From Chitinophagaceae bacterium PMP191F (GTDB lineage: Bacteria > Bacteroidota > Bacteroidia > Chitinophagales > Chitinophagaceae), in contig LGYU01000011.1 of the NCBI GenBank assembly GCA_001302245.1, positions 1-64,000 on the forward strand: a stretch of DNA of 64,000 nt, given 5' to 3'. The position numbers were made by a program, and so were the translations under genes. The notes beneath the pieces are model-generated. The model did no database searches, was not told where the DNA came from, and saw only the letters and a program-made list of their open reading frames with translations. Positions 8,168-22,545 of this stretch are shown here, piece after piece; positions within the stretch are counted from its first letter, which is position 1; every line of letters starts with the position of its first letter.

Positions 8168-9364
8168 TTACCGCTCAAAATAGCAAACGGTACCACCCAC
8201 CCAGGTTTTATCCTTATTATAGCGTACACCGATCATTTTACCCTTGCTGAGGCGTGCCAGGTTAATAGCTGGTTTCGGACGGGCCCAGCCATCTTTCCAC
8301 CAATACATCATCCTTATTTCTGCTTTGGCAGGAATATCAGGTGTTTCAATAATATCGGCGTACTGCACTTTACGTTGCAGTATCCAGTTGTGCGGGTCTG
8401 TTATTTTATCTATGTCTTTCTGCGTTACATCAATCACCACACCTTGTCCGGCAAACGAGAACAGAGGTTTCAATACATAATTTTCCAGGTCGTGCGGAAC
8501 CTGTTTGATCTCGTCCAGAAAGAAAGTGGACGGTACATATGGGTGACGGATAAATGGCAATGTGTATTTGCTGATGCGGTAAAACCAGTTGGGGTGCGGT
8601 ATCCATTCCACATCCAGTTCCTGCGTAATGTCAACAAATGATCCCAGTTGATCCTTTTGTGCGTTCAGTTCATCAAAGATCACCCGGTTGTATATGCGTT
8701 GTACGGCTGTTTTTACACCATCACGCATATAGAATAATTTTTTTCCCTCCTGTATTAGTTCTGTAATGCAAACAGGACGAATGCCGGTGATGGTTTCGGT
8801 ACAGTAAAAATCAATTCTTGTTTTCTGTTGGTGTGGTTTTATTTCCAGCAGGATCACGTTTTCTGCCGGTCTATTGCCGGTAAGAATACTACGCAGATCG
8901 TCACGGTAAGTATCCCTGGTGTAATTGCCCAGGTACTGCGTATAGTTTTCTGGTATGGAAAAGAACTGCCGCTGTATATCGGGAAACCAGCTTTGAAAAC
9001 CAAACAGGGTAGGAAATCCCTGCATTTCAATCAGTCGTGGTTCATGCTCACCTGTTTCTTCATTAACACATACACCAAAATCAAAAGCGATCATATGGGC
9101 ATGATCATTTTCACCCGGTACGCTGTCTTTGGCCGGAATGGCATTTTCGGTAAGGGTTTTAAATGCCGGATCAAGAATGATATCAACAATGCTTTCACAT
9201 GCATCGATCAGTTTATTGCCAAATGCCTTATCAATAAAAACAGGTGTTTCCGCTATTTTAAAATCAATGGCGCCGGGATATTCACTGTTCAGTTTATCAA
9301 CAAATGCATTGTATTGTTCTTCGGTAAATGCGGCGTTGTAGGCTTTGCGCAGACTGGTTACCAT
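8168..9364 (-). CDS. ATP-grasp-like protein, candidate amidoligase component
   Basis: This 398-residue protein has features of a circularly permuted or divergent ATP-grasp enzyme: NYVLKPLFSFAGQGV looks like the ATP-binding lysine and glycine loop (about residues 285-300), and an acidic patch with EIRMMYWW follows (about 355-365). An N-terminal part has IAFDFGVCV and LIEMQGFPTLFG. If correct, it would activate a carboxylate with ATP and join it to an amine. I cannot prove the fold by eye. The frame is open to 9517 but the extra 51 codons are repeat-like noncoding words, so ATG 9362-9364 (MVTSLRKAYN) is chosen. It follows the glutamine amidotransferase gene on the same strand, separated by a repeat-filled gap. 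Confidence 0.65.
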   Translation of the reverse strand: MVTSLRKAYNAAFTEEQYNAFVDKLNSEYPGAIDFKIAETPVFIDKAFGNKLIDACESIVDIILDPAFKTLTENAIPAKDSVPGENDHAHMIAFDFGVCVNEETGEHEPRLIEMQGFPTLFGFQSWFPDIQRQFFSIPENYTQYLGNYTRDTYRDDLRSILTGNRPAENVILLEIKPHQQKTRIDFYCTETITGIRPVCITELIQEGKKLFYMRDGVKTAVQRIYNRVIFDELNAQKDQLGSFVDITQELDVEWIPHPNWFYRISKYTLPFIRHPYVPSTFFLDEIKQVPHDLENYVLKPLFSFAGQGVVIDVTQKDIDKITDPHNWILQRKVQYADIIETPDIPAKAEIRMMYWWKDGWARPKPAINLARLSKGKMIGVRYNKDKTWVGGTVCYFER

Positions 9365-9409
9365 AACCGGTGGTTTATAAACGGAAGGTAATGATAAATA
9401 CAGGAAGTC

Positions 9410-9590
9410 GGAAAACATGAAATTGGAAAGCCAGGAAGATAAGGTACAAGGTGCAAGGTTCAGGGAAAGGCAGAAGTCTGAGGTCTGAAATCTGAAAAGA
9501 ATACCCGACTGGCTCATCCGGGCGGGCGAAATGCAGAGTATGGCGCATTAATAAAAGTCCGGAAGACCGGAAGTCAGGAATAAATGAATA
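9410..9590. repeat. Degenerate intergenic repeat words, copy 2
   Basis: The gap between the ATP-grasp-like gene and the amidotransferase holds GGTACAAGGTGCAAGG (9443-9458), AGTCTGAGGTCTGAAATCTG (near 9475) and GTCCGGAAGACCGGAAGTC (near 9554-9575). Near-identical words occur near 1330, 4620, 19020-19045 and 49929. Confidence 0.65.
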
Positions 9591-9603
9591 TCAGCACTTC
9601 AAA

Positions 9604-10461
9604 TTACACCACATGCTGCGTTTCGCTCAGCAATTGTTCTGTAGCAAGATTCAGGAAATTGGGAATGACATGTGCGTAGGTATACAGTATTTTGTCGGGA
9701 TCGTTCAGTTGTTCGATCATGGATTGCCATTTTTCAAAACCATGATTGTCTACAACGATCTGTTTACGATCATCACGTTGCAGGTACATGCTGGTACCCA
9801 CTGCATCTGCTTCCGGGTGAAACTGCGTTCCCACCATATATTGATTGAAACGTACACCCATAATGGCGCGTTCCAGCGGTACATGCGGACGTTCTTTTTC
9901 AATGGCCAGCAGACTGGCACCCAGTTCCTGCAGTTTGTCGTAGTCGGGTTGTACAACCTGGTAATCGCGGCTGTCCAGCACATAGAAAGGATCCTGTAAA
10001 CCGGCAAAAATGGGTTCATTGGTGCCATCGGGCAACATGTGTACCGGGAAAACACCAAAGGCAGTGGAACGTCTGCGTGTTACTTTGGCTATATTAAAGT
10101 ACCGGCAGGCAAGCTGGAAGGAATGACAGATAAAGAACACATATTTTTTGTGTTGATTTTTGTCATCCTCATTAAACCGGATGGTTTGCTGTATCCAGTT
10201 GAAATAAAGCTGCTCCCATTCGCTGCCCTCACTGTCGAGGGGAGATCCGGGGCCGCCACTGGAAATATAGAGATCGTAGGAAAAGTCTGGTAGCTGTTTA
10301 TGCTGCCGCACTTCAAATTCGTCACATACCAGTTTTAACTGGTGCTGGCGGGCAAACTCCTGTAACAATTCGCGCAAACAACGCATACCCTGGTTGGCAT
10401 GTCCTTCATAAAGGTCCAGGATCGCTACACGGATGGATGGTTGCTGTTCGTTCTTGTACAT
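9604..10461 (-). CDS. Class I glutamine amidotransferase-like protein
   Basis: This 285-residue protein has a type 1 glutamine amidotransferase fold. The nucleophile elbow is FICHSFQLACR with Cys112, and the His-Glu pair is in GTQFHPEAD (His215, Glu217). An oxyanion-region motif SSGGPGSP is at about 68-74. The position after the nucleophile reads His-Ser where most family members have a glycine, a small oddity. It should release ammonia from glutamine, or hydrolyse a gamma-glutamyl bond, for a partner synthetase. The partner is not fused, and the nearest candidates are the ATP-grasp-like protein downstream and the GCS2 and ATP-grasp enzymes at 19-21 kb. A -7 box lies five bases before the ATG. 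Confidence 0.85.
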   Translation of the reverse strand: MYKNEQQPSIRVAILDLYEGHANQGMRCLRELLQEFARQHQLKLVCDEFEVRQHKQLPDFSYDLYISSGGPGSPLDSEGSEWEQLYFNWIQQTIRFNEDDKNQHKKYVFFICHSFQLACRYFNIAKVTRRRSTAFGVFPVHMLPDGTNEPIFAGLQDPFYVLDSRDYQVVQPDYDKLQELGASLLAIEKERPHVPLERAIMGVRFNQYMVGTQFHPEADAVGTSMYLQRDDRKQIVVDNHGFEKWQSMIEQLNDPDKILYTYAHVIPNFLNLATEQLLSETQHVV

Positions 10462-10466
10462 CGCTG

Positions 10467-10474
10467 CAAAATTA
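10467..10474 (-). promoter_or_regulatory. -7 box of the amidotransferase gene
   Basis: On the minus strand it reads TAATTTTG, an exact TAnnTTTG match, ending five bases before the start codon at 10461. This spacing implies a leaderless or nearly leaderless mRNA. Confidence 0.5.
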
Positions 10475-10691
10475 CCAATTTTTACTGTTATAGCGGTCCG
10501 GAGGGGCTTTTATGTGCACTATAAAAGACAGTTTATTGCTGAAAATGCATGATGATTTAATAAAATTTTAAACTGTTCTCCGGGGCTTTTTGCAGTCAGA
10601 AGGTTTTGTCAGGAGCTTTTACTGCTTAATCAGTAACTTTAAAAAGATTGCCTGCCTGTTATTTTCATACACCAAAAACAATGTAAATAAT

Positions 10692-12008
10692 ATGGCTGCA
10701 CCCGCTCCTGCATTAAAAAAAGTATTGAAACCTGTACATCTGTGGGCTATCGCTGTAGGCCTGGTGATCTCCGGCGAATACTTCGGCTGGAATTACGGAT
10801 GGGGCATTGCAGGTACTATGGGACTTCTGATCGCCACATTGATCGTTACCGTTTTTTATATTGTATTTATTTTCAGTTTTACAGAACTGACCGCTGCTAT
10901 ACCACATGCAGGGGGGACTTTTGCCTATGCTTATAAGGCATTGGGGCCAATAGGCGGAATGATTGCCGGGTATGCCACACTTGTTGAGTTTCTGCTGGCA
11001 CCTCCGGCTATTGCTTTTGCACTGGGTAGTTATGTACATTTCCTGTATCCGGCTATACCTGCGTTGACAACCGGCATAGTTTGCTTTGTTGTATTTACAT
11101 TGATCAATCTGCTGGGTATTAAAGAGTCTGCGGTATTTACACTTGTAGTAACCCTGCTGGCAGTGGCTGAGTTATTGTTATTCATGGGTATTGTAGCGCC
11201 TGCTTTTTCCATGAATAATTTTATGCAGCATGCCATGCCGGCCGGCTGGCCTGGTGTTTTTGCTGCAATACCATTTGCGATCTGGTTTTACCTGGCAATT
11301 GAAGGAGTGGCCATGGCAGCAGAAGAGGTAGAGCAACCACAACAAACAATACCACGCGGATACATTTATGGCATCTTTACGTTGGTGGTACTGGCATTGG
11401 GCGTAATGATATTTACCGGCGGTATTACAGACTGGCGTCGATTGAGCAATATTGATTATCCGCTACCGGAGGCAATAGGTATTGTATTGGGTAAACAAAA
11501 CAACCTGACAAAATTATTTGCAGGCATTGGCCTGTTTGGATTGATCGCTTCTTTTCACAGTATTATTGTAGGTTATTCAAGACAGATCTTTGCATTGGCA
11601 AGAAGTGGATATCTGCCTGTTTACCTGGCTGGCGTTAACAAAAAATTCCGTACACCGCACCGCGCGCTGCTGGCCGGCGGTGGTATTGGTATCATTGCAC
11701 TGTGTGCCGGTTCTACCGACAAGGCGATCATCATTGCTGCATTGGGTGCTATCGTATTGTATATTATCAGCATGATCAGCCTGTTTATACTGCGGCGTAA
11801 AGAGCCTGACCTGGAGCGACCTTTTAAAGTGCCCTTTTATCCGTGGTTTCCGCTGATTGCCTTATTGCTGGCAATACTATGTTTAATTGCTATTGTGTGG
11901 TATAACTGGTTATTGAGTGTATTGTTCTTTGCAGGATTGCTGGTGGCAGGATTTATTTTTGTTCTGACCGGCAGGTGGAGGAAGAGCAGCCAGGTTGTAT
12001 CCATATAA
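10692..12008 (+). CDS. eat: Ethanolamine permease (APC superfamily)
   Basis: This 438-residue transporter has about twelve hydrophobic helices and APC landmarks: ISGEYFGWNYGW in helix 1, PHAGGTFAYAYKALGP in helix 2-3, and WFYLAIEGVAMAAEEVEQP in the mid region. These match the ethanolamine permease branch of the amino-acid/polyamine/organocation superfamily. It should import ethanolamine across the inner membrane. It is followed after 28 bases by eutB, so substrate and operon agree. The frame is open to 10590 but those codons do not look like a transporter N-terminus; the ATG at 10692 (MAAPAPALKK) is chosen. Confidence 0.88.
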   Translation: MAAPAPALKKVLKPVHLWAIAVGLVISGEYFGWNYGWGIAGTMGLLIATLIVTVFYIVFIFSFTELTAAIPHAGGTFAYAYKALGPIGGMIAGYATLVEFLLAPPAIAFALGSYVHFLYPAIPALTTGIVCFVVFTLINLLGIKESAVFTLVVTLLAVAELLLFMGIVAPAFSMNNFMQHAMPAGWPGVFAAIPFAIWFYLAIEGVAMAAEEVEQPQQTIPRGYIYGIFTLVVLALGVMIFTGGITDWRRLSNIDYPLPEAIGIVLGKQNNLTKLFAGIGLFGLIASFHSIIVGYSRQIFALARSGYLPVYLAGVNKKFRTPHRALLAGGGIGIIALCAGSTDKAIIIAALGAIVLYIISMISLFILRRKEPDLERPFKVPFYPWFPLIALLLAILCLIAIVWYNWLLSVLFFAGLLVAGFIFVLTGRWRKSSQVVSI

Positions 12009-12036
12009 CGCTGTATAAAACTATAGTACAATACAT

Positions 12037-13404
12037 ATGTCATTTGCAATTACCATAGGTCATTATACTTATCGTTTTCAGGATCTGAAAACACTATTGG
12101 CAAAAGCTTCTCCCCTGCGTTCGGGAGATGTATTGGCCGGGCTGGCTGCAGATAGCGATGAAGAACGTGTGGCGGCCCAGATGGCACTGGCAGATGTTCC
12201 GCTAAAGACTTTTTTACAGGAAACAGTAATCCCCTACGAGCAGGATGAAATTACACGCCTGATCATTGATTCGCATAATAAAGAGGTTTTTACATTGGTC
12301 AGCAGCTTTACCACAGGTGAATTGCGCGACTGGTTATTGAGTGATGCAGCTACTGCTGCCATGTTGCAAACACTGGCACCGGGTTTAACGCCGGAAATGG
12401 TGGCCGCTGTTTCCAAACTGATGCGTAACCAGGATCTGGTGGCGGTAGCACGCAAATGTGAAGTGGTAACAAAGTTCCGTAATACCATTGGTTTGAAAGG
12501 ACGTTTTTCTACCCGCCTGCAACCCAACCACCCTACAGATGATCTGAAAGGTATTGCAGCCAGCCTGGTAGATGGACTATTGTATGGCAGTGGCGATGCA
12601 GTAATTGGTATTAATCCTGCTACCGATAATCCCGCCACTGTTATTGCATTATTACAGATGTTGGAAGAGGTGCGCGAAAAATATGCTATTCCTGTGCAAT
12701 CATGTGTATTATGTCATATTACCACTACTCTGAACATCATACCACGCGGAGCTCCTGTTGATCTTGTGTTTCAATCGATCGGCGGAACTGAAAAAACAAA
12801 TGCGGCGTTTGGCGTAAACATGGCATTGCTGCAGGAGGCTTACGATGCTGCCAATACTTTGCAACGTGGTACTGTGGGTAATCATTTTATGTATTTTGAA
12901 ACCGGGCAGGGTAGTTCTTTATCTGCCAATGCACATGAAGGCGTTGATCAGCAAACCTGCGAAGCAAGGGCATATGCAGTGGCGCGTGCATTTAATCCAT
13001 TACTGGTAAATTCAGTAGTAGGATTCATCGGGCCTGAATACCTGTTCGACGGTAAACAGATCACGCGTGCGGCACTGGAAGATCATTTCTGTGCAAAATT
13101 GTTAGGGCTGCCAATGGGAATGGATATCTGCTATACCAATCATGCGGCAGCAGACCAGGACGATATGGACAACCTGCTGGTATTGATGGGGGTAGCCGGC
13201 TGTAACTATATCATGGGGGTGCCGGGTTCAGATGATATCATGCTCAATTATCAATCTACCTCTTTTCACGATGCTCTTTTTATCAGAAAATTACTGAACT
13301 TACGTCCTGCGCCGGAATTTGAACAATGGCTTATACAGCAAGGTATTATGGATGAGCAGGGAAATCATTTGCCGGTAAATGCCAATCACCGGCTGTTGCA
13401 GTAA
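12037..13404 (+). CDS. eutB: Ethanolamine ammonia-lyase large subunit
   Basis: At 455 residues this is full length for EutB. It forms the TIM-barrel subunit that binds ethanolamine and, with EutC, adenosylcobalamin, and converts ethanolamine to acetaldehyde and ammonia. Recognisable stretches are GLKGRFSTRLQPNHPTDD, FQSIGGTEKTNAAFGVN, YFETGQGSSLSANAHEG and GVAGCNYIMGVPGSDDIML. It lies 28 bases after the permease and is separated from its light-chain partner by a secreted phosphodiesterase gene. No reactivase (eutA), shell protein or aldehyde dehydrogenase gene is in the window, and I see no cobalamin riboswitch upstream of the operon. Confidence 0.95.
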   Translation: MSFAITIGHYTYRFQDLKTLLAKASPLRSGDVLAGLAADSDEERVAAQMALADVPLKTFLQETVIPYEQDEITRLIIDSHNKEVFTLVSSFTTGELRDWLLSDAATAAMLQTLAPGLTPEMVAAVSKLMRNQDLVAVARKCEVVTKFRNTIGLKGRFSTRLQPNHPTDDLKGIAASLVDGLLYGSGDAVIGINPATDNPATVIALLQMLEEVREKYAIPVQSCVLCHITTTLNIIPRGAPVDLVFQSIGGTEKTNAAFGVNMALLQEAYDAANTLQRGTVGNHFMYFETGQGSSLSANAHEGVDQQTCEARAYAVARAFNPLLVNSVVGFIGPEYLFDGKQITRAALEDHFCAKLLGLPMGMDICYTNHAAADQDDMDNLLVLMGVAGCNYIMGVPGSDDIMLNYQSTSFHDALFIRKLLNLRPAPEFEQWLIQQGIMDEQGNHLPVNANHRLLQ

Positions 13405-13468
13405 ACCGTTACTGCATTGCTGAGGGCATGGGTAAGAAATGTATCTGTACTAACGATAAAAATGTATT

Positions 13469-14746
13469 ATGCTGAACAGGTTGCCCCTGATGTTATTGAG
13501 TTGCCTGATGATCGGTACACAGGTAAATGCACAACGTCCCAAGGATACTACACAACACGTGATCATCAACAGGACTAACAGTCCCGATCAGATGAACAAA
13601 CCTTATGTGATCATGATCTCTGCTGATGGATTCCGGTATGACTTTGCACAGAAATATCATGCAGAAAACCTGTTGCGATTGTCTGGAAAAGGGGTAAGGG
13701 CTGATTATATGATCCCTTCTTTTCCTTCTCTTACTTTTCCCAACCATTATTCGCTGGTAACAGGATTGTACCCGGCTCATCATGGTATTGTAAGCAATTA
13801 TTTTTATGCACCATCGGTTGGTAAAAAGTATGCATATACTGTAAATGCTGCAGACAGTGGCTGGTATGGCGGAATACCGCTATGGGTGCTGGCAGAACAA
13901 CAGCAGATGTTATCTGCCAGTTTTTACTGGGTTGGTTCAGAGGCAGCAATACAGGGTGTGAGACCTACCTATTATTATTCGTACAACGAAGATATCGCCA
14001 TTGATAAACGTATTGAAACGCTCAGGAACTGGTTACAGTTACCTCAGGAAAGACGTCCGCATATGATCACGTTCTATTTCCCTGAAGTAGATCATGAAGC
14101 ACATACCTATGGACCAGAAAGTCCGCAGACAGCAGCAGCCGTGCAGTTTGTAGATAAGAGTGTTGGTAAAATGACGGCGATGGTTGATTCGCTGCATTTA
14201 CCGGTTGATTTCGTCTTTGTATCAGATCATGGAATGGCTGCTGTAGATACTGCCAGTCCTATTCCTTTGCCGGCTATTGATACTTCAAAGTTTATTATAT
14301 CTTATGAAGATGTGTTGGTGCAGCTATATGCAAAAGACCCAACGTATGTTCGTGATACGTATGAACAGTTAAAGGCGGGCGTCAGTCATTACAAAGTATA
14401 CCTGCCCGATGAAACGCCTGCTGACTGGCATTATACACGTAGTGATGATAAGTTTCATCGTATCGGCGACATCATACTGGCACCAGAATATCCCAAAGTG
14501 TTTTCTGTACGTAGCGGCAGCCGGATAAAACCAGGTAAACATGGCTATGATCCACGCCAGGTACCTGTAATGCGTTCTACATTTATGGCATGGGGGCCAC
14601 ATATCAAAAAAATGAAACGGCTCAAACCTTTTGAAAATATTAATGTGTACCCATTGGTTGCACAATTGCTGCAACTGATAATACAGGATCCTATAGATGG
14701 AAAACCGGAAGTATTGAAAAAGATCATCCATAAAACAAAGCACTGA
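13469..14746 (+). CDS. Exported nucleotide pyrophosphatase/phosphodiesterase-like enzyme (ENPP type)
   Basis: This 425-residue protein has a signal peptide (about 1-21) and the alkaline-phosphatase-superfamily core. Metal and catalytic motifs are MISADGFRYD (Asp53), PSLTFPNHYSLVTGLYP with nucleophile Thr89, VDHEAHTYGP, FVSDHGM and KPGKHGYDP. ENPP enzymes cleave phosphodiesters such as nucleotide pyrophosphates or glycerophosphocholine in the periplasm or outside the cell. It sits between eutB and eutC with short gaps, so it is probably in the operon. The inference is that it frees ethanolamine-containing head groups for import. The sequence does not show substrate specificity. Confidence 0.88.
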   Translation: MLNRLPLMLLSCLMIGTQVNAQRPKDTTQHVIINRTNSPDQMNKPYVIMISADGFRYDFAQKYHAENLLRLSGKGVRADYMIPSFPSLTFPNHYSLVTGLYPAHHGIVSNYFYAPSVGKKYAYTVNAADSGWYGGIPLWVLAEQQQMLSASFYWVGSEAAIQGVRPTYYYSYNEDIAIDKRIETLRNWLQLPQERRPHMITFYFPEVDHEAHTYGPESPQTAAAVQFVDKSVGKMTAMVDSLHLPVDFVFVSDHGMAAVDTASPIPLPAIDTSKFIISYEDVLVQLYAKDPTYVRDTYEQLKAGVSHYKVYLPDETPADWHYTRSDDKFHRIGDIILAPEYPKVFSVRSGSRIKPGKHGYDPRQVPVMRSTFMAWGPHIKKMKRLKPFENINVYPLVAQLLQLIIQDPIDGKPEVLKKIIHKTKH

Positions 14747-14837
14747 GTTTTCCGGAACGGATAGGCTATTGTATTGGTATTTTTTGCACTGGTACACAGC
14801 GATTGTAAATTGTAATAACAATACCGCAGCTACACTT

Positions 14838-15596
14838 ATGGCAGTTCCTGAAAAATATACCGCAGGTGATCCCTGGCAATCACTAAAAACGTTTACGACG
14901 GCAAGAATTGCGCTGGGACGTACCGGCACCGGACTGCCGCTAAAGCAATGGTTGCAGTTTAAAATGGCGCATGCGCACGCACGTGATGCTGTGTATTCTG
15001 TATTACAAACAGAAAAGATCGTTGCTGAATTGGAAGATACCGGGTTGGCAGTATTGTTGCTGAACAGTCAGGCCACCGGCAGAGACCATTACCTGCAACG
15101 TCCGGATCTTGGTCGCAGATTACATGCTGTTGCTGCTGAAAGATTACAAACATATGCCGGCGACTATGATATTGTTTTTGTGGTGGCAGATGGATTATCA
15201 GCAACTGCCGCAAATCGTCATGCAGCAGCGTTGATTAAAACATTACTTCCATTGTTTCGTGAAAAGGGTTTTACCATGGCGCCGGTTTGCCTGGTACAGC
15301 AGGGACGTGTGGCTGTGGGGGATGATATCGGTACATTGCTGCGGGCAAAGCTGGTGCTGTTGCTGGTAGGAGAGCGGCCGGGTTTAAGTGCTCCCGATAG
15401 CCTGGGCGTATATATAACCTATAAACCTGTTCCGGGATTAACGGACGAATCGCGTAACTGTATTTCTAACATACATGCAGCAGGGTTATCCATAACAGTA
15501 GCCGCACAAAAGATCAACTACCTCGTTACTACTGCATTGCGTTTACAATTATCGGGTGTTTACCTGAAAGATGAATCTGAATTGTTGTACGAATAA
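14838..15596 (+). CDS. eutC: Ethanolamine ammonia-lyase small subunit
   Basis: This 252-residue protein is EutC, the cobalamin-binding light chain. It has TTARIALGRTGTGLP near the N-terminus, KMAHAHARDAVYS, the RPDLGRRL motif, and VLLVGERPGLSAPDSLGVY followed by RNCISNIHAAGL, all typical of the family. Its partner EutB is encoded at 12037. The frame extends to 14769, but ATG 14838 (MAVPEKYTAG) fits the family N-terminus. The stop codon overlaps the T-run of the convergent terminator at 15601-15624. Confidence 0.93.
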   Translation: MAVPEKYTAGDPWQSLKTFTTARIALGRTGTGLPLKQWLQFKMAHAHARDAVYSVLQTEKIVAELEDTGLAVLLLNSQATGRDHYLQRPDLGRRLHAVAAERLQTYAGDYDIVFVVADGLSATAANRHAAALIKTLLPLFREKGFTMAPVCLVQQGRVAVGDDIGTLLRAKLVLLLVGERPGLSAPDSLGVYITYKPVPGLTDESRNCISNIHAAGLSITVAAQKINYLVTTALRLQLSGVYLKDESELLYE

Positions 15597-15624
15597 AAAA
15601 GGCCGGATATTTTACAACCCGGCC
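15595..15624 (-). terminator. Terminator of the amidase-amidohydrolase operon
   Basis: GGCCGG (15601-15606) and CCGGCC (15619-15624) pair around a 12-base loop, and six T on the minus strand follow at 15595-15600. It lies nine bases after the amidohydrolase stop and also touches the eutC stop. Confidence 0.7.
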
Positions 15625-15632
15625 ATCAGCAA

Positions 15633-17255
15633 TTATTTTACTTTTTCACCGCCTACGTAAGTGGCCAGTACTTTTATTGAAAGCAATTCTTCCGGTTTGG
15701 TTTTCATCAGGTCTTTATCGGTAATAATAAAATCGGCCAGTTTACCTTTTTCCAGGCTGCCCTTTTCATGTTCTTCAAAATTTGACCTGGCAGCCCAGAT
15801 CGTCATACCACGCAATGCTTCCTCACGGGTCAGTGCGTTTTCGACCTGGTAACCACCATCCGGCCATCCTTTGGCATCTTTACGTACCACGGCCGCATAG
15901 AAAGTTTTGAAAGGAGAAATATCTTCTACCGGGAAGTCCGTGCCCAATGGAATCCAGCCATTCTGTTGCAGCAATTGTTTGTATGCATAGGCACCTTTTA
16001 CGCGCTCTGCTCCCAGGCGATCTCCTGCCCAATACATATCGCTGGTGGCATGTGTTGGCTGTACGGAAGGTACAATATTGTACTGACCAAATAATGTAAA
16101 ATCGTGCTGGTTCACTACCTGTGCATGTTCAATACGCCAGCGCAGGTCATTCTTTTCCTTCAGGTATTTTGCGTACGTATTCAGTATAATACGGTTGCCG
16201 GAATCACCAATGGCATGTGTGCACATCTGGAACCCGTTTTCATAAATGATCCTGGCAACAGAATCAAAATGTGCAGGGGTACTTAACAGGAAACCCCGCC
16301 AGCCCGGTTTATCATTGTAAGGCTGTAACAAACAGGCCCCTCTTGATCCTAATGCTCCATCTGCATATACTTTGAAAGAACGTACATTCAACCGGCCTGT
16401 TTTTATTTTTCCTTTTTTGAATAAGAAAGTATAATTCTCCGGCGCATCGCTCAGCATGGCATACATACGCATTTTCAGATCGCCTGATTGCTGAATACTG
16501 TCTATAAAACTTACTTCCTGGTGATCCAGGCCACAATCGTCAACAGTAGTAAGCCCTACCGCAAAACAATTTTCCTGTGCAGCCAGCAAAGCGGCTTTCA
16601 TCTGCGCCGGTGTTGGTGCAGGGATAATTTTAAATACAAGCCCTTCTGCATTATCAACCAATATACCGGTAAGCTTTCCGTTTTTAGTTTCTACTGTACC
16701 GCCAGTAAGCTGCATGCCGGGTTTTACACCTGCCATATCAAGAGCTTTCTGGTTGGCAATGGCTGCATGTCCGTCAATTCTTGACAATATCACCGGTCTG
16801 TTGGGGAATAATACATTGAGCTGATCATTGACCGGAAAATCTTTAACAGCCCAGTCGTTCTGATCCCAGCCACGACCGATCAGCCAGCCTTCGGGGTTCG
16901 CAGCAGCAAAGGCTTTCAGTTTATCCAGAATTTCCTGCCAACTGGTTGTTCCTGTAAGATTAGCTGTTCGCAGGCCCAATCCGTAACGGTAAAAATGAGC
17001 ATGTGCATCAATCAGGCCGGGATATATAAAAGCGCCCTTTGCATCATTTTTTGCAGTTGCTTCATACTGCTGTTCAATAGTTTCGTTAGTGCCGGTAGCT
17101 ACTATTTTTCCGTCTTTCACGGCAATGGCAGTAGCAGTAGAAAAAGCGCTGTCTACGGTGTAAACGGTGGCATTGTATACAACAAGATCAACTTTTTCCC
17201 TGGTATTACAGCTTATAATGGCAAGTAATCCAAGTGCTGTGCAGAATCGTTTCAT
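15633..17255 (-). CDS. Exported metal-dependent amidohydrolase (YtcJ-like)
   Basis: This 540-residue protein belongs to the amidohydrolase superfamily (Amidohydro_3, YtcJ/NfdA type). A lipoprotein signal ends in IISC (Cys16). Metal ligands appear in GLIDAHAHFYRYG and later in THAIGDSGN and HAQVVN; the last conserved motif is LGTDFPVE. The family hydrolyses N-substituted amides or formamides, usually of unknown natural substrate. It is 34 bases downstream of the amidase gene and shares the terminator at 15595-15624, so the two form an operon of exported amide hydrolases. They may break down an amide that could feed the neighbouring ethanolamine or amidoligase genes; this is inference. Confidence 0.85.
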   Translation of the reverse strand: MKRFCTALGLLAIISCNTREKVDLVVYNATVYTVDSAFSTATAIAVKDGKIVATGTNETIEQQYEATAKNDAKGAFIYPGLIDAHAHFYRYGLGLRTANLTGTTSWQEILDKLKAFAAANPEGWLIGRGWDQNDWAVKDFPVNDQLNVLFPNRPVILSRIDGHAAIANQKALDMAGVKPGMQLTGGTVETKNGKLTGILVDNAEGLVFKIIPAPTPAQMKAALLAAQENCFAVGLTTVDDCGLDHQEVSFIDSIQQSGDLKMRMYAMLSDAPENYTFLFKKGKIKTGRLNVRSFKVYADGALGSRGACLLQPYNDKPGWRGFLLSTPAHFDSVARIIYENGFQMCTHAIGDSGNRIILNTYAKYLKEKNDLRWRIEHAQVVNQHDFTLFGQYNIVPSVQPTHATSDMYWAGDRLGAERVKGAYAYKQLLQQNGWIPLGTDFPVEDISPFKTFYAAVVRKDAKGWPDGGYQVENALTREEALRGMTIWAARSNFEEHEKGSLEKGKLADFIITDKDLMKTKPEELLSIKVLATYVGGEKVK

Positions 17256-17289
17256 AATTGCTGGTGTATAAGTAAAGTATTGTTACCTG

Positions 17290-18936
17290 TTATTGAAGAA
17301 ATTTCTCCGGATGTTTTTTATTGAACTCCGTATTGTCCTGAAATGCTTTGGCTACAGCCAGTATGGTTGCTTCATCATACAGGTTGCCCAGCAAGGTAAT
17401 ACTGGTGGGTAAACCATTTTGTGTAAAACCAACAGGAAACACTACCACCGGGTGACCGGTAAGATTGGTCATAGCCAGTTGGCTGCCACCAAAGGTAGGC
17501 GTTATTATTACATCGTATTGTTTCGTAAAAGCATTCAGCTTTTCTATCAGTACCGAGCGGTGACGATTGGCATTGATATATTCTACTGCAGGAACAAAAC
17601 GCGCGGTACGGAAACTGTTTGGCCAGAAACCTTTGTCCTGTCTTCTGATCAGGTCATCACGGTTGCTGCGTGTCAGTTCATCAAAAGCTGCGGCAGATTC
17701 TGCATTGATCACCGGTTCCATAATGTTAAAAGGATAAATAGCAGAATCCGGGAAATCAACAGCAGTGATCTCTGCTCCCAGTTTGCGATATGTTTCCAGC
17801 ACGGCCCACTGAGGAGCTGTTTGTGGCAGATTTTTAAAATAGTTGGCTGCATAGGCAATGCGTAATTTTTTCCAGTTTACTTTACCAGTGTAATTGAATG
17901 CACGTACTATTGCACCTGCATCCTTGCCGTCAGTTCCTTTCAGATAATAAAAAACAACAGCTGCATCTTCTGCGCTGCGGCAGATAGGGCCTGCTTTATC
18001 AAGACTCCAGCTTAATACCATTGCACCACTGCGGCTAACAGAACCAAACGTAGGACGCAAGCCTGTGGTGCCACAGACATTGGACGGCGATACAATGGAA
18101 CCATGTGTTTCTGTACCGATTGCAAAAGGCAACAATCCTGCTGCTGTGGCAGAAGCAGAACCTGCTGAAGAACCGCTTGATCCTTGTTTGATATTCCAGG
18201 GATTGCGTGTTCTGCCACCAAACCACAGATCATTAAACGCCAGCTCGCCCAGTGTTAATTTGGCGCAGAGTACAGCACCGGCTTTTTTAAGCTGTGTATA
18301 CACAAAAGCATCTTCTTCAATTACCTGCTCTTTATAAGGAACCGATCCCCAGGTGGTTTTATACCCTTTTACAGCAAACAGGTCTTTTAAGCCGTAGGGA
18401 ATACCATGCAGCGGTCCGTGGTAAATACCTTTTTTCAGTTCATCATCTGCCTGCTGTGCCTGTTGTAATGCCAGGTCTTCTGTGAGCGTGATTACACATT
18501 CCAGTGTGTCGCCCCATTTTTTCAGGCGATCAAGAAAAAAGTGTGTGAGTTCTACTGAACTGATCTTTTTGTTTTTGATCAGTGATGCCAGTTGTATTAC
18601 AGAATAAAACGCCAGATCGTTTTTATTGGCAGGAAGTGATACCGCAGCCGGAATATTCCAATTGATGGTTTCCTGTTTTACAGGTATTACAAATCCTTGC
18701 GGGGCAGGTGTAAATGCAAAAGGATAGGGGATGCTGTTGGGAATGGATTGCTGGTGCATTTTATGGTAGGTACGCACATTGCGTTTTAACCCATCCAGCA
18801 TAGAATCTTTTTCTGCAGGGGTAAATTGCAGATCCAGTAAACGTTCCGCCTGTGAAACGGTAGCAGTATCGATTACAGTTTGTGAAAAGACATGGGTAGC
18901 AAAGCACACGCATATCAGTAGCAGCAGGTAACGCAT
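17290..18936 (-). CDS. Exported amidase-signature enzyme
   Basis: This 548-residue protein has a signal peptide (about 1-18) and a full amidase-signature domain. The Ser-cis-Ser-Lys triad is visible: Lys in HGIPYGLKDLFAVKG, the Gly/Ser-rich loop QGSSGSSAGSASATAAG, and the nucleophile region ETHGSIVSPSN. It hydrolyses a carboxamide or peptide amide in the periplasm. It is close to GatA in fold, but the signal peptide, the absence of gatB/gatC nearby and the export make a tRNA role unlikely. It leads a two-gene operon with the amidohydrolase. Confidence 0.88.
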   Translation of the reverse strand: MRYLLLLICVCFATHVFSQTVIDTATVSQAERLLDLQFTPAEKDSMLDGLKRNVRTYHKMHQQSIPNSIPYPFAFTPAPQGFVIPVKQETINWNIPAAVSLPANKNDLAFYSVIQLASLIKNKKISSVELTHFFLDRLKKWGDTLECVITLTEDLALQQAQQADDELKKGIYHGPLHGIPYGLKDLFAVKGYKTTWGSVPYKEQVIEEDAFVYTQLKKAGAVLCAKLTLGELAFNDLWFGGRTRNPWNIKQGSSGSSAGSASATAAGLLPFAIGTETHGSIVSPSNVCGTTGLRPTFGSVSRSGAMVLSWSLDKAGPICRSAEDAAVVFYYLKGTDGKDAGAIVRAFNYTGKVNWKKLRIAYAANYFKNLPQTAPQWAVLETYRKLGAEITAVDFPDSAIYPFNIMEPVINAESAAAFDELTRSNRDDLIRRQDKGFWPNSFRTARFVPAVEYINANRHRSVLIEKLNAFTKQYDVIITPTFGGSQLAMTNLTGHPVVVFPVGFTQNGLPTSITLLGNLYDEATILAVAKAFQDNTEFNKKHPEKFLQ

Positions 18937-19309
18937 ATACAGTCAGTAGTTGGTTTATTATTGGCAGTTATAATACCGTACCGTATAAAGATAAGGCAGG
19001 CAGTTTGAAGTTGGAAGAAGTCGGGAAGACCGGAAGATAAAAGGTACAAGCGCAGGGTTCCAGGCGTAATTGTTGGTAAGTTGAAAAATTAACAAGGGAT
19101 TGTTCACTGCTAACAGCTAATATCCAATTGCTAATATCTTTCTTCGTGTTCCTTTATGTCTCCGCGTCTTTGGGGTTCTAATAAGTCTGAAATGGCTGTG
19201 AGTCATGAGCAAGGATCGCAACGACCACTCACTATTCACGTTTCATGATTGATGTTTCTCTTTTCACATAATCAGCAATCTGGCATCAGCACCAGAAACC
19301 TGCAACCTC
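18937..19309. repeat. Gene-free gap filled with degenerate repeat words, copy 3
   Basis: This 373-base gap has no convincing gene. Bases 19010-19045 hold GTCGGGAAGACCGGAAG and AAAGGTACAAGCGCAGG. Bases 19073-19175 match 1245-1320, including CTTTCTTCGTGTTCCTTT. Bases 19225-19255 read CACTCACTATTCACG followed by TTCATGATT, and near 19297 is AACCTGCAACCTCT, a word also seen near 43165 and 47800. Confidence 0.65.
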
Positions 19310-20422
19310 TCAGATCCCTACCAGGAACTGACTGGTGATGTAATCAACAACAGATGTAAGATTTTTATTCTGTTCAAATACTTTTAACTGGCGGTCTGCA
19401 CCGGTGCCTTCTTCCATCATGCGGGGAATATGATTGATGGCGTGCCTGCTACCCAGGTGATCCACTACGTCGTCAATAAAATCAAGCAGTTCGTAGATCA
19501 GTACACGGGTGTTGGTCTCTTCTTCTTTGCCAAAATCGATCAGTCGCCCATCAATACCATAACGGCTGGCGCGCCATTTATTTTCATTGATCAGTGCGCG
19601 GGAGTATTGAATGAAGTTGAGATTCTGCGAACGCAGTTTGTAGATCTTGGCACAAACACCCTGGAACAATGCCGCAATGGCAATGGTTTCATTCACCGTC
19701 ATAGGAACGTCGCAGATGCGGAATTCCACTGTATTAAAGAACGGGTGTACACGAAGGTCCCACCATATTTTTTTAGCGTTGTCAATACAATTGGTCTTTA
19801 CCAGCAGCTTGATATAATTGTCGTACGCTTCAATGCTTTCAAATGTTTCAGGTATACCGGTACGGGGAAATTTATCAAACACTTTTGTACGGAAAGATTT
19901 ATAGCCGGTCTGTCTTCCTTCCCAGAAAGGAGAGTTGGTGCTCAGTGCGTAAATATGCGGTAAGAAATAGCGGGTGGAATTGGCAATGTGATTGGCCATT
20001 TCACGGCTTTCCATGCCTACGTGCACGTGCAAGCCAAAGATCAGGTTGCTGCGGGCAGCCTCCTGCAGCTCGTTTACAATTTCATTATAGCGTATATGGT
20101 CGGTGATCAGCTGGCTTTCCCAATGACTGAAGGGGTGTGTACCTGCTGCACCTATACGACAGTCGAGGCTTTCTGCAATACCTGCAATGGTTCTGCGGAG
20201 AACAGATACATCATTGAAGGCCTCATCTACATTCTGGCAGATATCAGTGCCTACTTCCACTACTGCCTGGTGCATTTCGGCCTTTACTTTATCCTTGATC
20301 ACTTTCTGACCTTCAGTTACTATTCTCTGTTCATGGCTTTTGAGCTCGCGCGTTTGCGGATCCAGAACCATGTATTCTTCTTCAATGCCCAGGGTAAAGT
20401 GGTTGTAATTAATGGCAGCCAT
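19310..20422 (-). CDS. GCS2-family carboxylate-amine ligase (YbdK-like)
   Basis: This 370-residue enzyme belongs to the glutamate-cysteine ligase 2 family (COG2170, glutamine-synthetase-like fold). It shows LGIEEEYMVLDP at the N-terminus, VVEVGTDICQNV, the AGTHPF loop, GLHVHVGM and VEFRICDVPM, the usual metal and ATP ligands. YbdK-type enzymes form an amide between a carboxylate and an amine with ATP. Only weak glutamate-cysteine ligase activity is known for some members, so the true substrate is open. It is downstream of an ATP-grasp ligase gene on the same strand, which suggests sequential ligations. With the amidotransferase and ATP-grasp-like protein at 8-10 kb it forms the proposed split cluster. 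Confidence 0.9.
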   Translation of the reverse strand: MAAINYNHFTLGIEEEYMVLDPQTRELKSHEQRIVTEGQKVIKDKVKAEMHQAVVEVGTDICQNVDEAFNDVSVLRRTIAGIAESLDCRIGAAGTHPFSHWESQLITDHIRYNEIVNELQEAARSNLIFGLHVHVGMESREMANHIANSTRYFLPHIYALSTNSPFWEGRQTGYKSFRTKVFDKFPRTGIPETFESIEAYDNYIKLLVKTNCIDNAKKIWWDLRVHPFFNTVEFRICDVPMTVNETIAIAALFQGVCAKIYKLRSQNLNFIQYSRALINENKWRASRYGIDGRLIDFGKEEETNTRVLIYELLDFIDDVVDHLGSRHAINHIPRMMEEGTGADRQLKVFEQNKNLTSVVDYITSQFLVGI

Positions 20423-20475
20423 AATGTTGATGTACAGATTGGTTTGTGTGCAAATTAATCAATGGGCTAATACTG

Positions 20476-20563
20476 ATCTGAAAATTTGAAGATGTGTCAA
20501 ATTGGAAATGGAGCTTTAGTCGCATTCTTATTTTCAAATTTTCAAATTGGTGCATTTTCAGAT
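20476..20563. repeat. Inverted repeat between the two ligase genes
   Basis: ATCTGAAAAT (20476-20485) is repeated inverted as ATTTTCAGAT (20554-20563), which covers the stop codon of the ATP-grasp gene. Between them lie several CAAATTGG/CAAATTTT words. The stem is long and A/T rich, with no clear T-run. Confidence 0.45.
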
Positions 20564-21511
20564 TAACGCTTGTTTCTTCGTGCTTCTTACCACGTACTGA
20601 CCCCATGTAAGGTTGTCTTTACCTGGTGCATACTGAGTAGCTCTTTCAATAGCATAGTTGGCGGCTGTTTCCACCACCCATTCAAAATTTTCATCGCCAA
20701 TACTGGGACGATCAGCATCAGGAGCAGGGTTGCAGAAATCAATGGCATAAGGCACACCGTCGCGTACAGCCAGCTCTACCGTATTGAAATCATATCCCAG
20801 GTATTGATTCAGCCGGATAACAATATCTTCCATCTGTTGCAAACGTTCTGCAGAAGGTGAGAATGAACTTACATACCGCAGATGATGCGGGTTGCGTGGT
20901 TCGTACGGCATAATACGTACATGCTTACCTCCAATGCAGTAGCAACGGTAATATTCTTCAAAAATAATTTCTTCCTGCAACAGCATTACCAGCTGACCGG
21001 TTTCATGATGTTTGTGAAAGAAATCTTCCATGTCGTGCAGCTTATATACATTTTTCCATCCACCGCCGGCAAATGGTTTCATATATGCAGGAAAACCTAC
21101 GTAATTAAAAATTCCTTCCCAGTCGAGCGGGTAAGACAGGTTGGTAAACGATTCATCACTGGTATCGGGTGGTAATTCGCGAGAAGGCAGAATAACGGTT
21201 TTGGGAACCGGTACGCCTATTTTAACAGCCAGGCAGTTATTAAAGAATTTTTCATCGGCACTGAACCAGAAAGGGTTGTTGATCACTGCAGTACCACAGA
21301 TGGCGGCATCTTTCAGGTAGGCGCGGTAAAAAGGCACGTCCTGCGAAATACGATCTACAATAACAGCGTATTCATCTGCTGCGCCCTGGACCACTTTATC
21401 TATACGAACCGGTTCTGCTACAATGTCATTAAGCCCTTTACTGTTTACACGCTCTATAAAAGCCATCGGAAAAGTTCTTTCCTTACCGAACAGGATTCCA
21501 ATCTTTTTCAT
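20558..21511 (-). CDS. ATP-grasp carboxylate-amine ligase (RimK/D-Ala-D-Ala-ligase-like)
   Basis: This 317-residue protein has an ATP-grasp layout: an N-terminal preATP part starting MKKIGILFGKE, PAYMKPFAGGGWKNVY as the lysine and flexible glycine loop (about 145-160), LLQEEIIFEEYYRCY as the hinge and following strand, and VELAVRDGVPYAIDFCNPAPDAD as the metal-binding acidic and Asn motif (about 258-280). It joins a carboxylate to an amine through an acyl phosphate. The substrate is unknown. Its stop is 135 bases before the GCS2 gene on the same strand and its start faces the esterase gene, so it is the first gene of a probable ligase operon. Confidence 0.82.
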   Translation of the reverse strand: MKKIGILFGKERTFPMAFIERVNSKGLNDIVAEPVRIDKVVQGAADEYAVIVDRISQDVPFYRAYLKDAAICGTAVINNPFWFSADEKFFNNCLAVKIGVPVPKTVILPSRELPPDTSDESFTNLSYPLDWEGIFNYVGFPAYMKPFAGGGWKNVYKLHDMEDFFHKHHETGQLVMLLQEEIIFEEYYRCYCIGGKHVRIMPYEPRNPHHLRYVSSFSPSAERLQQMEDIVIRLNQYLGYDFNTVELAVRDGVPYAIDFCNPAPDADRPSIGDENFEWVVETAANYAIERATQYAPGKDNLTWGQYVVRSTKKQALI

Positions 21512-21714
21512 CAGGAAATAGTGCTTTTGGTTGAATAATAAATGATTGCGGGCAGGTAAGCATAGACGGGTACTGATTAAAGATCGTTCTTTTTTAAGCA
21601 GTCGCAGGTCTCTCTCTCAAATTTATCTGAACGGCGTGTAAAAAACAAATCATAACGCAACATTAAAAAAACAGCTCATTTTTTTGTAAAAGATAGCTAT
21701 AAGGTGTTATTTAT

Positions 21715-21722
21715 TACTTTTG
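21715..21722 (+). promoter_or_regulatory. -7 box of the esterase gene
   Basis: TACTTTTG is an exact TAnnTTTG match and ends four bases before the ATG at 21727. The expected start of transcription falls on or next to the A of the ATG, so the mRNA is probably leaderless. Confidence 0.5.
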
Positions 21723-21726
21723 GCCC

Positions 21727-22545
21727 ATGCAAACACCACTAACGATTGATGCATGGGTTGATTCCCATGCCATTTATTCCGTAAAACTGGGTAGAGAAGT
21801 AAAGTTAACTGTGTACCTGCCGGCCACCCCCGCTAATACTGTTACCACGGATCTGTTACTGGTCAACGACGGACAAGATTTGGAAGCAATGGGTTTTGAT
21901 AAAATGATCGGTTACCTTTTGCATGAAGCAACTATTCATCCTGTATTGTGTGTAGGTATTCATTGTGGCGATGACCGCCTGAATGAATATGGTGTATCAT
22001 CAGGCCCCGACTTTAAAGGTCGTGGTGCCAAAGCTGTACAATATCGCCAGTTCATTGCAGAGGAACTGCTGCCCTGGCTGCATGCACATTATGATCAGTA
22101 TACATTTGGTCAAACTGCTATTGCCGGTTTTTCACTGGGTGCATTGAGTGCGCTGGATATTGCCTGGACACTTCCCGGTGTATTTTCAAAAGTAGGTGCG
22201 TTTTCCGGTTCTTTCTGGTGGCGTTCCAAAGACAGGGCCGACAGGGATTTTAATGAGCAGAAACATCGCATGATGCACATAGCCATCCGCGAAGGAAATT
22301 ACCAGCCCGGTATAAAATTCTTTTTTGAATGTGGTGAGCAGGATGAAAAAGAAGATCGTAATAACAATGGTGTGATCGATTCCATTGATGATACCATTGA
22401 TATTATGCGCGAGCTGCTGGCCAAGGGATATAAAGAAGGAAAGGATCTGTATTACCTGCAGTTGAAAGATGGTAAGCACGATGTTGCCACCTGGGCCAAA
22501 GCTCTGCCCATATTCCTGAAATGGGGATGGAGAAAAAGAGCATAG
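21727..22545 (+). CDS. Esterase-D-like alpha/beta hydrolase with a calcium-loop insert
   Basis: This 272-residue enzyme is a putative esterase of the Fes/esterase D type. The nucleophile elbow is AGFSLGALSA and a late GKHDVATW carries the likely histidine; the acidic residue is probably in FECGEQDE. Residues 210-221 (DRNNNGVIDSID) form a perfect EF-hand/dockerin-type calcium loop inserted just after that acid. No signal peptide is visible, so it is cytoplasmic. It is divergent from the ATP-grasp/GCS2 operon, 215 bases away, and could hydrolyse an ester or amide of that pathway's product. A bidirectional terminator follows. Confidence 0.85.
   Translation: MQTPLTIDAWVDSHAIYSVKLGREVKLTVYLPATPANTVTTDLLLVNDGQDLEAMGFDKMIGYLLHEATIHPVLCVGIHCGDDRLNEYGVSSGPDFKGRGAKAVQYRQFIAEELLPWLHAHYDQYTFGQTAIAGFSLGALSALDIAWTLPGVFSKVGAFSGSFWWRSKDRADRDFNEQKHRMMHIAIREGNYQPGIKFFFECGEQDEKEDRNNNGVIDSIDDTIDIMRELLAKGYKEGKDLYYLQLKDGKHDVATWAKALPIFLKWGWRKRA

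What the first reader, a model, noticed from the sequence alone, without database searches (positions are those of the whole stretch)
8168..22545. Split amidoligase cluster: two ATP-grasp-type ligases, GCS2 ligase, glutamine amidotransferase and esterase
Seen: a GCS2 ligase and a RimK/D-Ala ligase-like ATP-grasp adjacent on the minus strand (19310-21511), a divergent esterase (21727), and, 9 kb away on the same strand, a class I amidotransferase (9604) and an ATP-grasp-like protein (8168). Known: GCS2 and ATP-grasp amidoligases cluster with amidotransferases and alpha/beta hydrolases in gene-neighbourhood studies of amidoligases, where unknown peptide or amide products were predicted. Inference: the window encodes one pathway for an undescribed amide or short peptide, whose two halves were separated by the ethanolamine and exported-hydrolase genes.
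Basis: partly seen in the sequence, partly recalled or inferred. Interest (0 to 1): 0.72.

Follow-up and report, generated by a model that had tools for sequence, protein, structure and literature searches.

The report
Split amide-ligase cluster of Bacteroidota
Five genes in this stretch of a Chitinophagaceae genome belong to one old set of enzymes that many Bacteroidota keep or lack as a set, and that probably builds an unidentified small peptide or amide; here ethanolamine genes have split the set in two.

Summary
The five genes are there; the 8168 protein starts near 9364 and is an ATP-grasp of the glutathione-synthetase/YgiC fold (Z 25.8). One split pathway is well supported: in 60 Chitinophagaceae genomes (one per genus), 37 have all five genes, 13 none, 10 a part. 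Seven of 80 fetched records show them side by side as EST< RIM> GCS2> GAT> A2>. Of 70 Bacteroidota genomes with both ATP-grasps, 41 have these within 6 kb on one strand. Three loci of two other families add a second esterase. Two revisions: only the ethanolamine block looks foreign (Niastella shares it), while the amidase and amidohydrolase recur at this place in relatives; and the 'amidotransferase' keeps its Cys-His-Glu triad but has an altered cysteine motif (117 of 117), and in two genomes a metallopeptidase fills its slot, so a peptide or gamma-glutamyl hydrolase is more likely than an ammonia supplier. Best reading: a three-ligase, hydrolase-trimmed peptide/amide pathway, product unknown. 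The main earlier survey (Iyer 2009) could not be read, so prior description is not excluded.

The parts
8168..9364 (-). A2: ATP-grasp ligase of the glutathione-synthetase / glutathionylspermidine-synthase (YgiC) fold; start corrected from 9517
   Evidence: AlphaFold model pLDDT 91; Foldseek top 3n6x E 3.9e-13; VIA Z 25.8 to YgiC 7uk8, 343 residues, rmsd 3.5; start from alignment A1
9604..10461 (-). GAT: class I glutamine-amidotransferase-like cysteine hydrolase with altered elbow motif FICHSFQ
   Evidence: PF00117 above gathering; model pLDDT 91.5; Z 21-22 tied between TM1158, MetA, DnfC, gamma-glutamyl peptidase 1 and a GMP-synthase subunit; motif in 117 of 117
10590..12008 (+). ethanolamine permease; first gene of the block inserted into the cluster
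   Evidence: TIGR00908 513.8 bits, cut-off 381.75; same insertion in Niastella loci L095, L096
12037..13404 (+). EutB, inserted block
   Evidence: PF06751 E 2.2e-218
13469..14746 (+). type I phosphodiesterase/nucleotide pyrophosphatase inside the eut block; N-terminus looks like a signal peptide (by eye)
   Evidence: PF01663 E 9.5e-76; eutB and eutC are neighbours in L095 and L096
14769..15596 (+). EutC, inserted block
   Evidence: PF05985 E 1.8e-88
15633..17255 (-). AMH: amidohydrolase, lipoprotein-like N-terminus by eye (not tested); possible accessory member of the cluster
   Evidence: NCBIfam amidohydrolase-type models, best E 1.1e-13, all listed ones below their cut-offs; orthologues directly upstream of GAT on the same strand in 14 distinct pairs; 39 of 60 family genomes at E<=1e-80
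17290..18936 (-). AMD: amidase, signal-peptide-like N-terminus by eye (not tested); possible accessory member of the cluster
   Evidence: NCBIfam amidase models, best E 4.4e-67, below their cut-offs; directly before AMH in 4 distinct pairs; 18 of 60 family genomes at E<=1e-80
19310..20422 (-). GCS2: YbdK-type carboxylate-amine ligase
   Evidence: profile match to YbdK 1r8g E 6.1e-57
20558..21511 (-). RIM: divergent RimK-like ATP-grasp
   Evidence: TIGR00768 E 5.4e-7, below cut-off; profile comparison best with E. coli RimK (196 columns) and GshB (133) among 11 proteins, E about 0.005, low probability
21618..21649 (-). candidate promoter TTTG-N20-TAAATTTG in the divergent RIM/EST intergenic region (21512-21726)
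   Evidence: pattern found by script, no chance estimate made; the Bacteroidota consensus is recalled, not from a call
21727..22545 (+). EST: divergent alpha/beta-hydrolase of the Esterase family
   Evidence: PF00756; divergent next to RIM in 30 distinct pairs

Best explanation
The five genes are one conserved Bacteroidota enzyme module that makes (and trims) a small peptide or amide. SHOWN: the genes are largely co-inherited and often clustered and closely spaced in the genomes examined; three encode proteins of ATP-dependent ligase families (GCS2; a glutathione-synthetase-fold ATP-grasp; a RimK-like ATP-grasp, more weakly supported); one encodes a Cys-His-Glu protein of the class I amidotransferase fold; one or two encode esterase-family hydrolases. 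INFERRED: GCS2 activates a carboxylate (by analogy the gamma-carboxylate of glutamate) as an acyl phosphate and joins it to an amine; the two ATP-grasps each add a further amide bond the same way; GAT then cleaves a gamma-glutamyl or peptide bond instead of feeding ammonia; the esterases act on an ester of the substrate or product. In the window the cluster was opened between GCS2 and GAT by an ethanolamine-use block on the other strand, an insertion shared with Niastella. The amidase and amidohydrolase at the same place are optional partners.
For: Co-inheritance: 37 of 60 genera have all five, 13 none, 10 a part. Phylum: of 247 genomes A2 is in 73, GAT 59, RIM 86, GCS2 79; 70 of 73 A2 genomes have RIM and 68 of 73 have GCS2. 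Proximity: 41 of 70 genomes with A2 and RIM have them within 6 kb on the same strand (for 45 of them, the other 25 read); A2 within 500 bp of GAT in 67 of 80 fetched records. Spacing of 60 bp or less: RIM-GCS2 33 of 51, GCS2-GAT 20 of 28, GAT-A2 54 of 105 distinct adjacent pairs. EST<|EST2>RIM>GCS2>GAT>A2> in L203, L204, L206. Replacements fit ligase and hydrolase roles: an ATP-grasp of another, circularly permuted family sits between RIM and GAT in all 8 loci fetched out of 13 genomes that have RIM and GAT but not A2; an M29-type metallopeptidase sits between GCS2 and A2 in two genomes lacking GAT, L078 and L183. Folds of A2 and GAT.
Against: No substrate, product or activity is shown. The set is not indivisible: in the family set 4 genomes lack RIM and EST (G009, G015, G046, G059), 2 lack EST, 2 lack GCS2, 1 lacks A2 and 1 has only a distant RIM; in the phylum set 24 genomes have A2, RIM and GCS2 without GAT, and only 4 of those 24 have A2 and RIM close together. 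In 29 of 70 genomes A2 and RIM are not close, and 13 of 80 fetched records show no GAT near A2 although 9 of these have 8 kb or more upstream. GAT matches acyltransferase (MetA) and glutaminase folds as well as gamma-glutamyl peptidase, all within 1 Z. The M29 replacement rests on two loci; two other tight clusters without GAT (L079, L085) have nothing in its place. Amidohydrolase and amidase: 33 of 39 and 17 of 18 carriers also have GAT, Fisher p 0.06 and 0.045. The Fisher values ignore shared ancestry.
Confidence: 0.6

Rival explanations
1. Same module, but GAT is a true glutaminase that passes ammonia to one of the ligases, so the product carries a primary amide (glutathione-amide-like).
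For: GAT is above the Pfam GATase gathering score; triad conserved, GGPG loop found by pattern in 114 of 117; DnfC, TM1158 and a GMP-synthase subunit are among the best folds.
Against: The glycines two before and two after the cysteine, usual in glutaminases (recalled), are F/L and S in 117 of 117; a metallopeptidase takes its slot in two genomes; 24 genomes have the three ligases without it.
Confidence: 0.2
2. A glutathione-like low-molecular-weight thiol pathway: GCS2 as GshA-like, A2 as GshB-like, GAT as gamma-glutamyl peptidase, EST as an S-formylglutathione-hydrolase-like thioesterase.
For: A2 has the fold of eukaryotic glutathione synthetase and GspS; [quoted passage not shown] GCS2 and RIM are single copy in nearly every carrier and well conserved.
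Against: Bacteroidetes are reported to make bacillithiol or N-methyl-bacillithiol, and that survey lists gshA-B in other groups only (PMC6282198, passages seen). EST is closer to enterochelin and siderophore esterases than to S-formylglutathione hydrolase. A third ligase and the peptidases are not needed for a tripeptide thiol.
Confidence: 0.08
3. An amine-use pathway of the PuuA/PuuD type: GCS2 gamma-glutamylates an amine such as ethanolamine and GAT removes glutamate later, which would explain the eut genes inside the cluster.
For: A ligase of the glutamine-synthetase superfamily plus an amidotransferase-fold hydrolase is the PuuA/PuuD logic (established knowledge); eut genes sit inside the cluster here and in Niastella.
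Against: Eut genes lie there in only 3 of 80 fetched records, one of them a short piece; EutBC deaminates ethanolamine without glutamylation (established knowledge); Puu-type oxidase or dehydrogenase genes were not among the labelled or scanned neighbours, but were not searched for; the two ATP-grasps stay unexplained.
Confidence: 0.08
4. No common pathway: a stretch of conserved synteny carrying separate housekeeping genes.
For: Presence is family-structured, so co-occurrence partly reflects ancestry; many genomes have the genes apart.
Against: The genes are neighbours in different arrangements (for example GAT> A2> GCS2< RIM< in L101 and L151) and with replacements in the same slots; when split they are still mostly kept or lost together.
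Confidence: 0.04

Closest known systems
YgiC / YjfC and glutathionylspermidine synthetase (ATP-grasp, glutathione-synthetase fold)
   Same: Whole-length fold match of A2, Z 25.8 (YgiC), 25.4 (YjfC), 24.1 (GspS)
   Different: 11-16% identity only; the window protein matches no Pfam model at E<=0.01; neighbours of YgiC/GspS were not compared
YbdK family GCS2 carboxylate-amine ligase
   Same: GCS2 meets the NCBIfam subfamily and PRK13515 equivalog cut-offs and aligns over 334 columns with YbdK
   Different: Kept in a multi-ligase cluster; substrate not known
Stand-alone class I amidotransferase-fold proteins: gamma-glutamyl peptidase 1, DnfC, TM1158, MetA
   Same: Fold; Cys-His-Glu triad; GGPG loop in 114 of 117
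   Different: Elbow motif [FL][IV]C[HY]S[FY]Q instead of G-x-C-x-G-x-Q (canonical motif recalled)
Amidoligase-peptidase gene neighbourhoods (Iyer et al. 2009, not held; Iyer et al. 2008, PMC2588565, passages seen)
   Different: Those passages concern another ligase family; this cluster combines GCS2 with two ATP-grasps, GAT and one or two esterases; whether the 2009 survey lists it could not be checked

Membership tests
ATP-grasp, glutathione-synthetase/GspS type (protein 8168) | Whole-chain fold | tested here: met
   Predicted model: Z 25.8, 343 of 398 residues, rmsd 3.5 with 7uk8
ATP-grasp, glutathione-synthetase/GspS type (protein 8168) | Sequence match to the Pfam GSP_synth model | tested here: not met
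   E 0.064, below gathering; 3 of 29 relatives match at E<=0.01, best 3.6e-4
ATP-grasp, glutathione-synthetase/GspS type (protein 8168) | ATP-dependent amide bond formation | not testable with these tools
   needs enzyme assay
RimK family (protein 20558) | Family score above curated cut-off | tested here: not met
   TIGR00768 29.2 bits against 143.4, E 5.4e-7
RimK family (protein 20558) | Collinear relation to known ATP-grasps | tested here: inconclusive
GCS2 / YbdK carboxylate-amine ligase (protein 19310) | Family score above curated cut-off | tested here: met
   PF04107 199.6 bits (cut-off 21), PRK13515 524 (371), TIGR02050 292.1 (176.4)
Class I glutamine amidotransferase (protein 9604) | Family score and fold | tested here: met
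   31.3 bits against 22.8; Z 21.9 with TM1158
Class I glutamine amidotransferase (protein 9604) | Cys-His-Glu triad | tested here: met
   C112, H215, E217 invariant in 25 sequences; HPE motif found in 116 of 117 by pattern
Class I glutamine amidotransferase (protein 9604) | G-x-C-x-G-x-Q glutaminase elbow (motif recalled) | tested here: not met
   [FL][IV]C[HY]S[FY]Q in 117 of 117
Class I glutamine amidotransferase (protein 9604) | Glutaminase activity / ammonia transfer | not testable with these tools
   needs assay
Amidoligase-hydrolase gene neighbourhood | Ligases and hydrolases conserved as neighbours across lineages | tested here: met
Glutathione biosynthesis | GshA plus GshB activity on Glu, Cys, Gly | not testable with these tools
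   no assay; YbdK relation only
Graspetide (RiPP) cluster | Precursor peptide gene beside the ATP-grasp | not tested
   Gaps inside clusters are often 60 bp or less, leaving little room there; flanks were not scanned for short frames

The most novel reading that the evidence does not exclude
A phylum-wide, undescribed Bacteroidota pathway in which three different ATP-dependent ligases build a small peptide or amide (or amide tag) and an atypical amidotransferase-fold hydrolase, exchangeable for a metallopeptidase, removes a protecting or leaving residue. It would be a widespread metabolite or modification of this phylum that has no name yet.
Probability: 0.4. Interest if true: 0.78.

Novelty: new variant of a known kind. 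Interest (0 to 1): 0.55.

Why it matters
Genes that are single copy in nearly every carrier, 70-88% identical for full-length GCS2 across genera of the family, and largely kept or lost as a set usually mark a real product of general use. No product is known to me, and the searches of the held library listed no paper on this combination, judged by titles and abstract starts. Because the gene set, its order, its replacements and the genomes without it are now listed, knock-out plus metabolomics in one culturable strain could reveal the product directly. The work also separates likely cluster members from intruders, which matters for anyone annotating these genomes.

Tried and rejected
Rejected: 'the amidase and amidohydrolase are intruders like the eut genes'. 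Their orthologues recur at this place in relatives. Strict membership is also rejected: 6 of 39 amidohydrolase carriers lack GAT.

Rejected as main reading: a link to ethanolamine use (eut genes in 3 of 80 fetched records). A plasmid-borne origin found no support: no record of the plasmid collection matches A2 or RIM.

Led nowhere: Pfam scan of RIM and 17 relatives (0 of 18); PDB sequence search for RIM (none); paper searches for this gene combination or its members (no paper on the cluster among the titles and abstract starts listed); passages of PMC3765264 and PMC8939145 do not describe it. The survey of Iyer et al. 2009 is not held, so I cannot say whether it lists this cluster. Distribution outside Bacteroidota was not tested, apart from plasmids. 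Genes in the loci were labelled by best BLAST hit to window proteins (later also to some locus proteins) among open frames of 90 to 150 or more residues (110 in most scripts), so shorter genes are not seen, and the labels 'SusC', 'p1526', 'm5073' and 'TlpA7007' mean large families and were not counted as members. Fold lists do not exclude families that are not listed.

Sampling limits: esterase presence counts only the 40 strong hits (E 1e-69 or better); weaker paralogue hits were dropped, among them those in G006 and G018. A2 in G042 is a 32-residue piece at 2.8e-9 that was counted as present. Some partial patterns come from incomplete genomes (G012 is 72% complete). One search computed 45 of 70 genomes; the other 25 were read by eye (other contig or far apart). 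Counts can hold the same genome twice, once unnamed and once named; one search removed identical pairs only. Of the 13 fetched records without GAT near A2, 9 have 8 kb or more upstream and 4 have less.
Full report
WHAT IS THERE. Call them A2 (8168), GAT (9604), GCS2 (19310), RIM (20558) and EST (21727). GCS2, GAT and EST are above curated Pfam cut-offs. RIM is a remote RimK relative: TIGR00768 E 5.4e-7 but far below its cut-off, and RimK and GshB are the best of 11 comparison proteins in profile alignment, at low probability. A2 is hardly recognised by sequence (GSP_synth E 0.064), but its AlphaFold model (pLDDT 91) fits YgiC at Z 25.8, glutathionylspermidine synthetase at 24.1 and eukaryotic glutathione synthetases at about 20-24 over the whole chain. 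It is therefore an ATP-grasp by predicted fold. Its start is near 9364, not 9517.

CO-INHERITANCE. In 60 genomes of the family, each from another genus, A2 was found in 45 (one of them a 32-residue piece), GAT in 46, GCS2 in 44, RIM in 43 and EST (strong hits only) in 40. By pattern, 37 have all five, 13 none, 4 lack RIM and EST, 2 lack EST, 2 lack GCS2, 1 lacks A2, and 1 has only a 35% RIM relative. Of the 13 genomes without any, 12 are at least 90% complete. In 247 Bacteroidota genomes: A2 73, GAT 59, RIM 86, GCS2 79; all four in 41, A2+RIM+GCS2 without GAT in 24, none in 152. Pairwise Fisher p values run from 1e-18 to 1e-42. These values ignore common descent and overstate the evidence.

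PROXIMITY AND ORDER. In the family the set is often split: A2 and GAT lie within 15 kb in 29 of 45 genomes, GCS2 and RIM in 38 of 40, but A2 and RIM in only 12 of 41. Yet the order EST< RIM> GCS2> GAT> A2>, with no other labelled or long frame between, exists in G052 (L017) and in seven of 80 fetched records: L129, L130, L131, L154, L157, L159 and L169, titled Ferruginibacter (three), Segetibacter, Chitinophaga pinensis, 'Chitinophagaceae bacterium' and 'uncultured bacterium'. A2 and GAT are within 500 bp in 67 of them; of the other 13, nine have 8 kb or more of upstream DNA without GAT. Of 70 Bacteroidota genomes with A2 and RIM, 41 have them within 6 kb and on the same strand (40 of them outside the family); 29 do not, the window's own genome among them at 11.2 kb (for 45 of the 70; the remaining 25 read). 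In L203, L204 and L206 (two other families) the cluster is EST< | EST2> RIM> GCS2> GAT> A2>, where EST2 is a second esterase-family protein related to EST. Gaps of 60 bp or less occur in 33 of 51 RIM-GCS2, 20 of 28 GCS2-GAT, 54 of 105 GAT-A2 and 15 of 19 EST2-RIM pairs.

WHAT SPLIT IT HERE. Between GAT and GCS2 the window has, on the + strand, an ethanolamine permease, EutB, a phosphodiesterase and EutC, and on the cluster's own strand an amidohydrolase (AMH) and an amidase (AMD) with signal-like N-termini by eye. Niastella soli (L095) and N. yeongjuensis (L096) carry EutC, EutB and the permease at the same place, in the same order and direction, and Longitalea luteola (L094) a short EutC piece. 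The insertion is thus probably inherited from a common ancestor. AMH or AMD orthologues sit between GCS2 and GAT in other relatives (L010, L011, L012, L014, L015, L023), and AMH directly upstream of GAT in 14 distinct pairs. They are better seen as optional partners. In another family an amidohydrolase gene abuts or overlaps A2 in all nine genomes of that family that carry A2 in the phylum sample (L084, L086; L211-L217); Pfam was run on L084 and L086 only, the rest are BLAST labels at 28-32% identity.

REPLACEMENTS. Thirteen genomes of the phylum sample have RIM and GAT but not A2. In all eight whose locus I fetched, the gene between RIM and GAT is labelled as one ATP-grasp family. Pfam was run on four (L170, L171, L175, L176): circularly permuted ATP-grasp PF14403, above the gathering score in L170 and L175 and below it in the other two. 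Profile comparison links it to A2 only weakly (E 0.005, better than the control pairs). Where A2, RIM and GCS2 are tight without GAT in the genome (four genomes), two (L078, L183) have an M29-type metallopeptidase in that slot and two (L079, L085) have nothing there. In Sediminibacterium-like loci an M42 aminopeptidase-family gene precedes GAT (17 distinct pairs; family).

GAT. The model (pLDDT 91.5) fits, with tied Z of 21-22, the T. maritima amidotransferase TM1158, MetA acyltransferases, DnfC, Arabidopsis gamma-glutamyl peptidase 1 and a GMP-synthase subunit. The cysteine, histidine and glutamate are invariant in 25 sequences. The elbow reads [FL][IV]C[HY]S[FY]Q in 117 of 117 sequences, without the two glycines usual in glutaminases (recalled). 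With the M29 replacement, this favours a hydrolase of a peptide or gamma-glutamyl bond over an ammonia supplier; neither is proved.

HOW IT PROBABLY WORKS. Ligase families of these kinds form acyl phosphates and then amides (established knowledge). Three ligases, a hydrolase and one or two esterases fit stepwise building of a small peptide or amide with a later trimming step. [quoted passage not shown] The fuller 2009 survey could not be read. A thiol cofactor is less likely, because Bacteroidetes are reported to use bacillithiol types (PMC6282198, passages).

VERDICT. The module is found in many families of Bacteroidota, its product is unknown, and some lineages add a second esterase. Its enzyme families are known ones, so it is rated a new variant of a known kind.

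Noticed in passing
window 13469-14746: A phosphodiesterase gene lies between eutB and eutC, whereas eutB and eutC are neighbours in Niastella loci L095 and L096. Microcompartment genes were not searched for.
   Followed up: partly
window 22640-26053: An outer-membrane beta-barrel protein with carboxypeptidase-regulatory domain stands beside EST; a protein of that large family stands on the far side of EST in 13 of 32 loci where a gene is visible there. It may take up or export the product, or be plain synteny.
   Followed up: partly
L078:8348-9367, L183:5796-6824: M29-type metallopeptidase genes in the slot of GAT in two genomes that lack GAT.
   Followed up: partly
L115:7864-8985 and similar: An M42 aminopeptidase-family gene directly precedes GAT in Sediminibacterium-like genomes (17 distinct pairs); in L115 it follows a 305-aa protein without Pfam match.
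   Followed up: no
L182, L189, L190: In one family RIM is next to a histidine-ammonia-lyase-like gene and GCS2 next to a serine carboxypeptidase (S10) gene; could hint at the substrate. L198 has the lyase near RIM too.
   Followed up: no
L211-L217, L084, L086: An amidohydrolase-like gene abuts or overlaps the A2 gene in all nine loci of one family.
   Followed up: partly
L095:8199-8867, L010:9885-10553: A GDSL-type lipase gene just upstream of GAT in Niastella and a relative.
   Followed up: no
window 5073-6835: A LytTR response regulator and a sensor kinase lie 1.3 kb from A2; a LytTR protein also stands next to GAT in L139.
   Followed up: no
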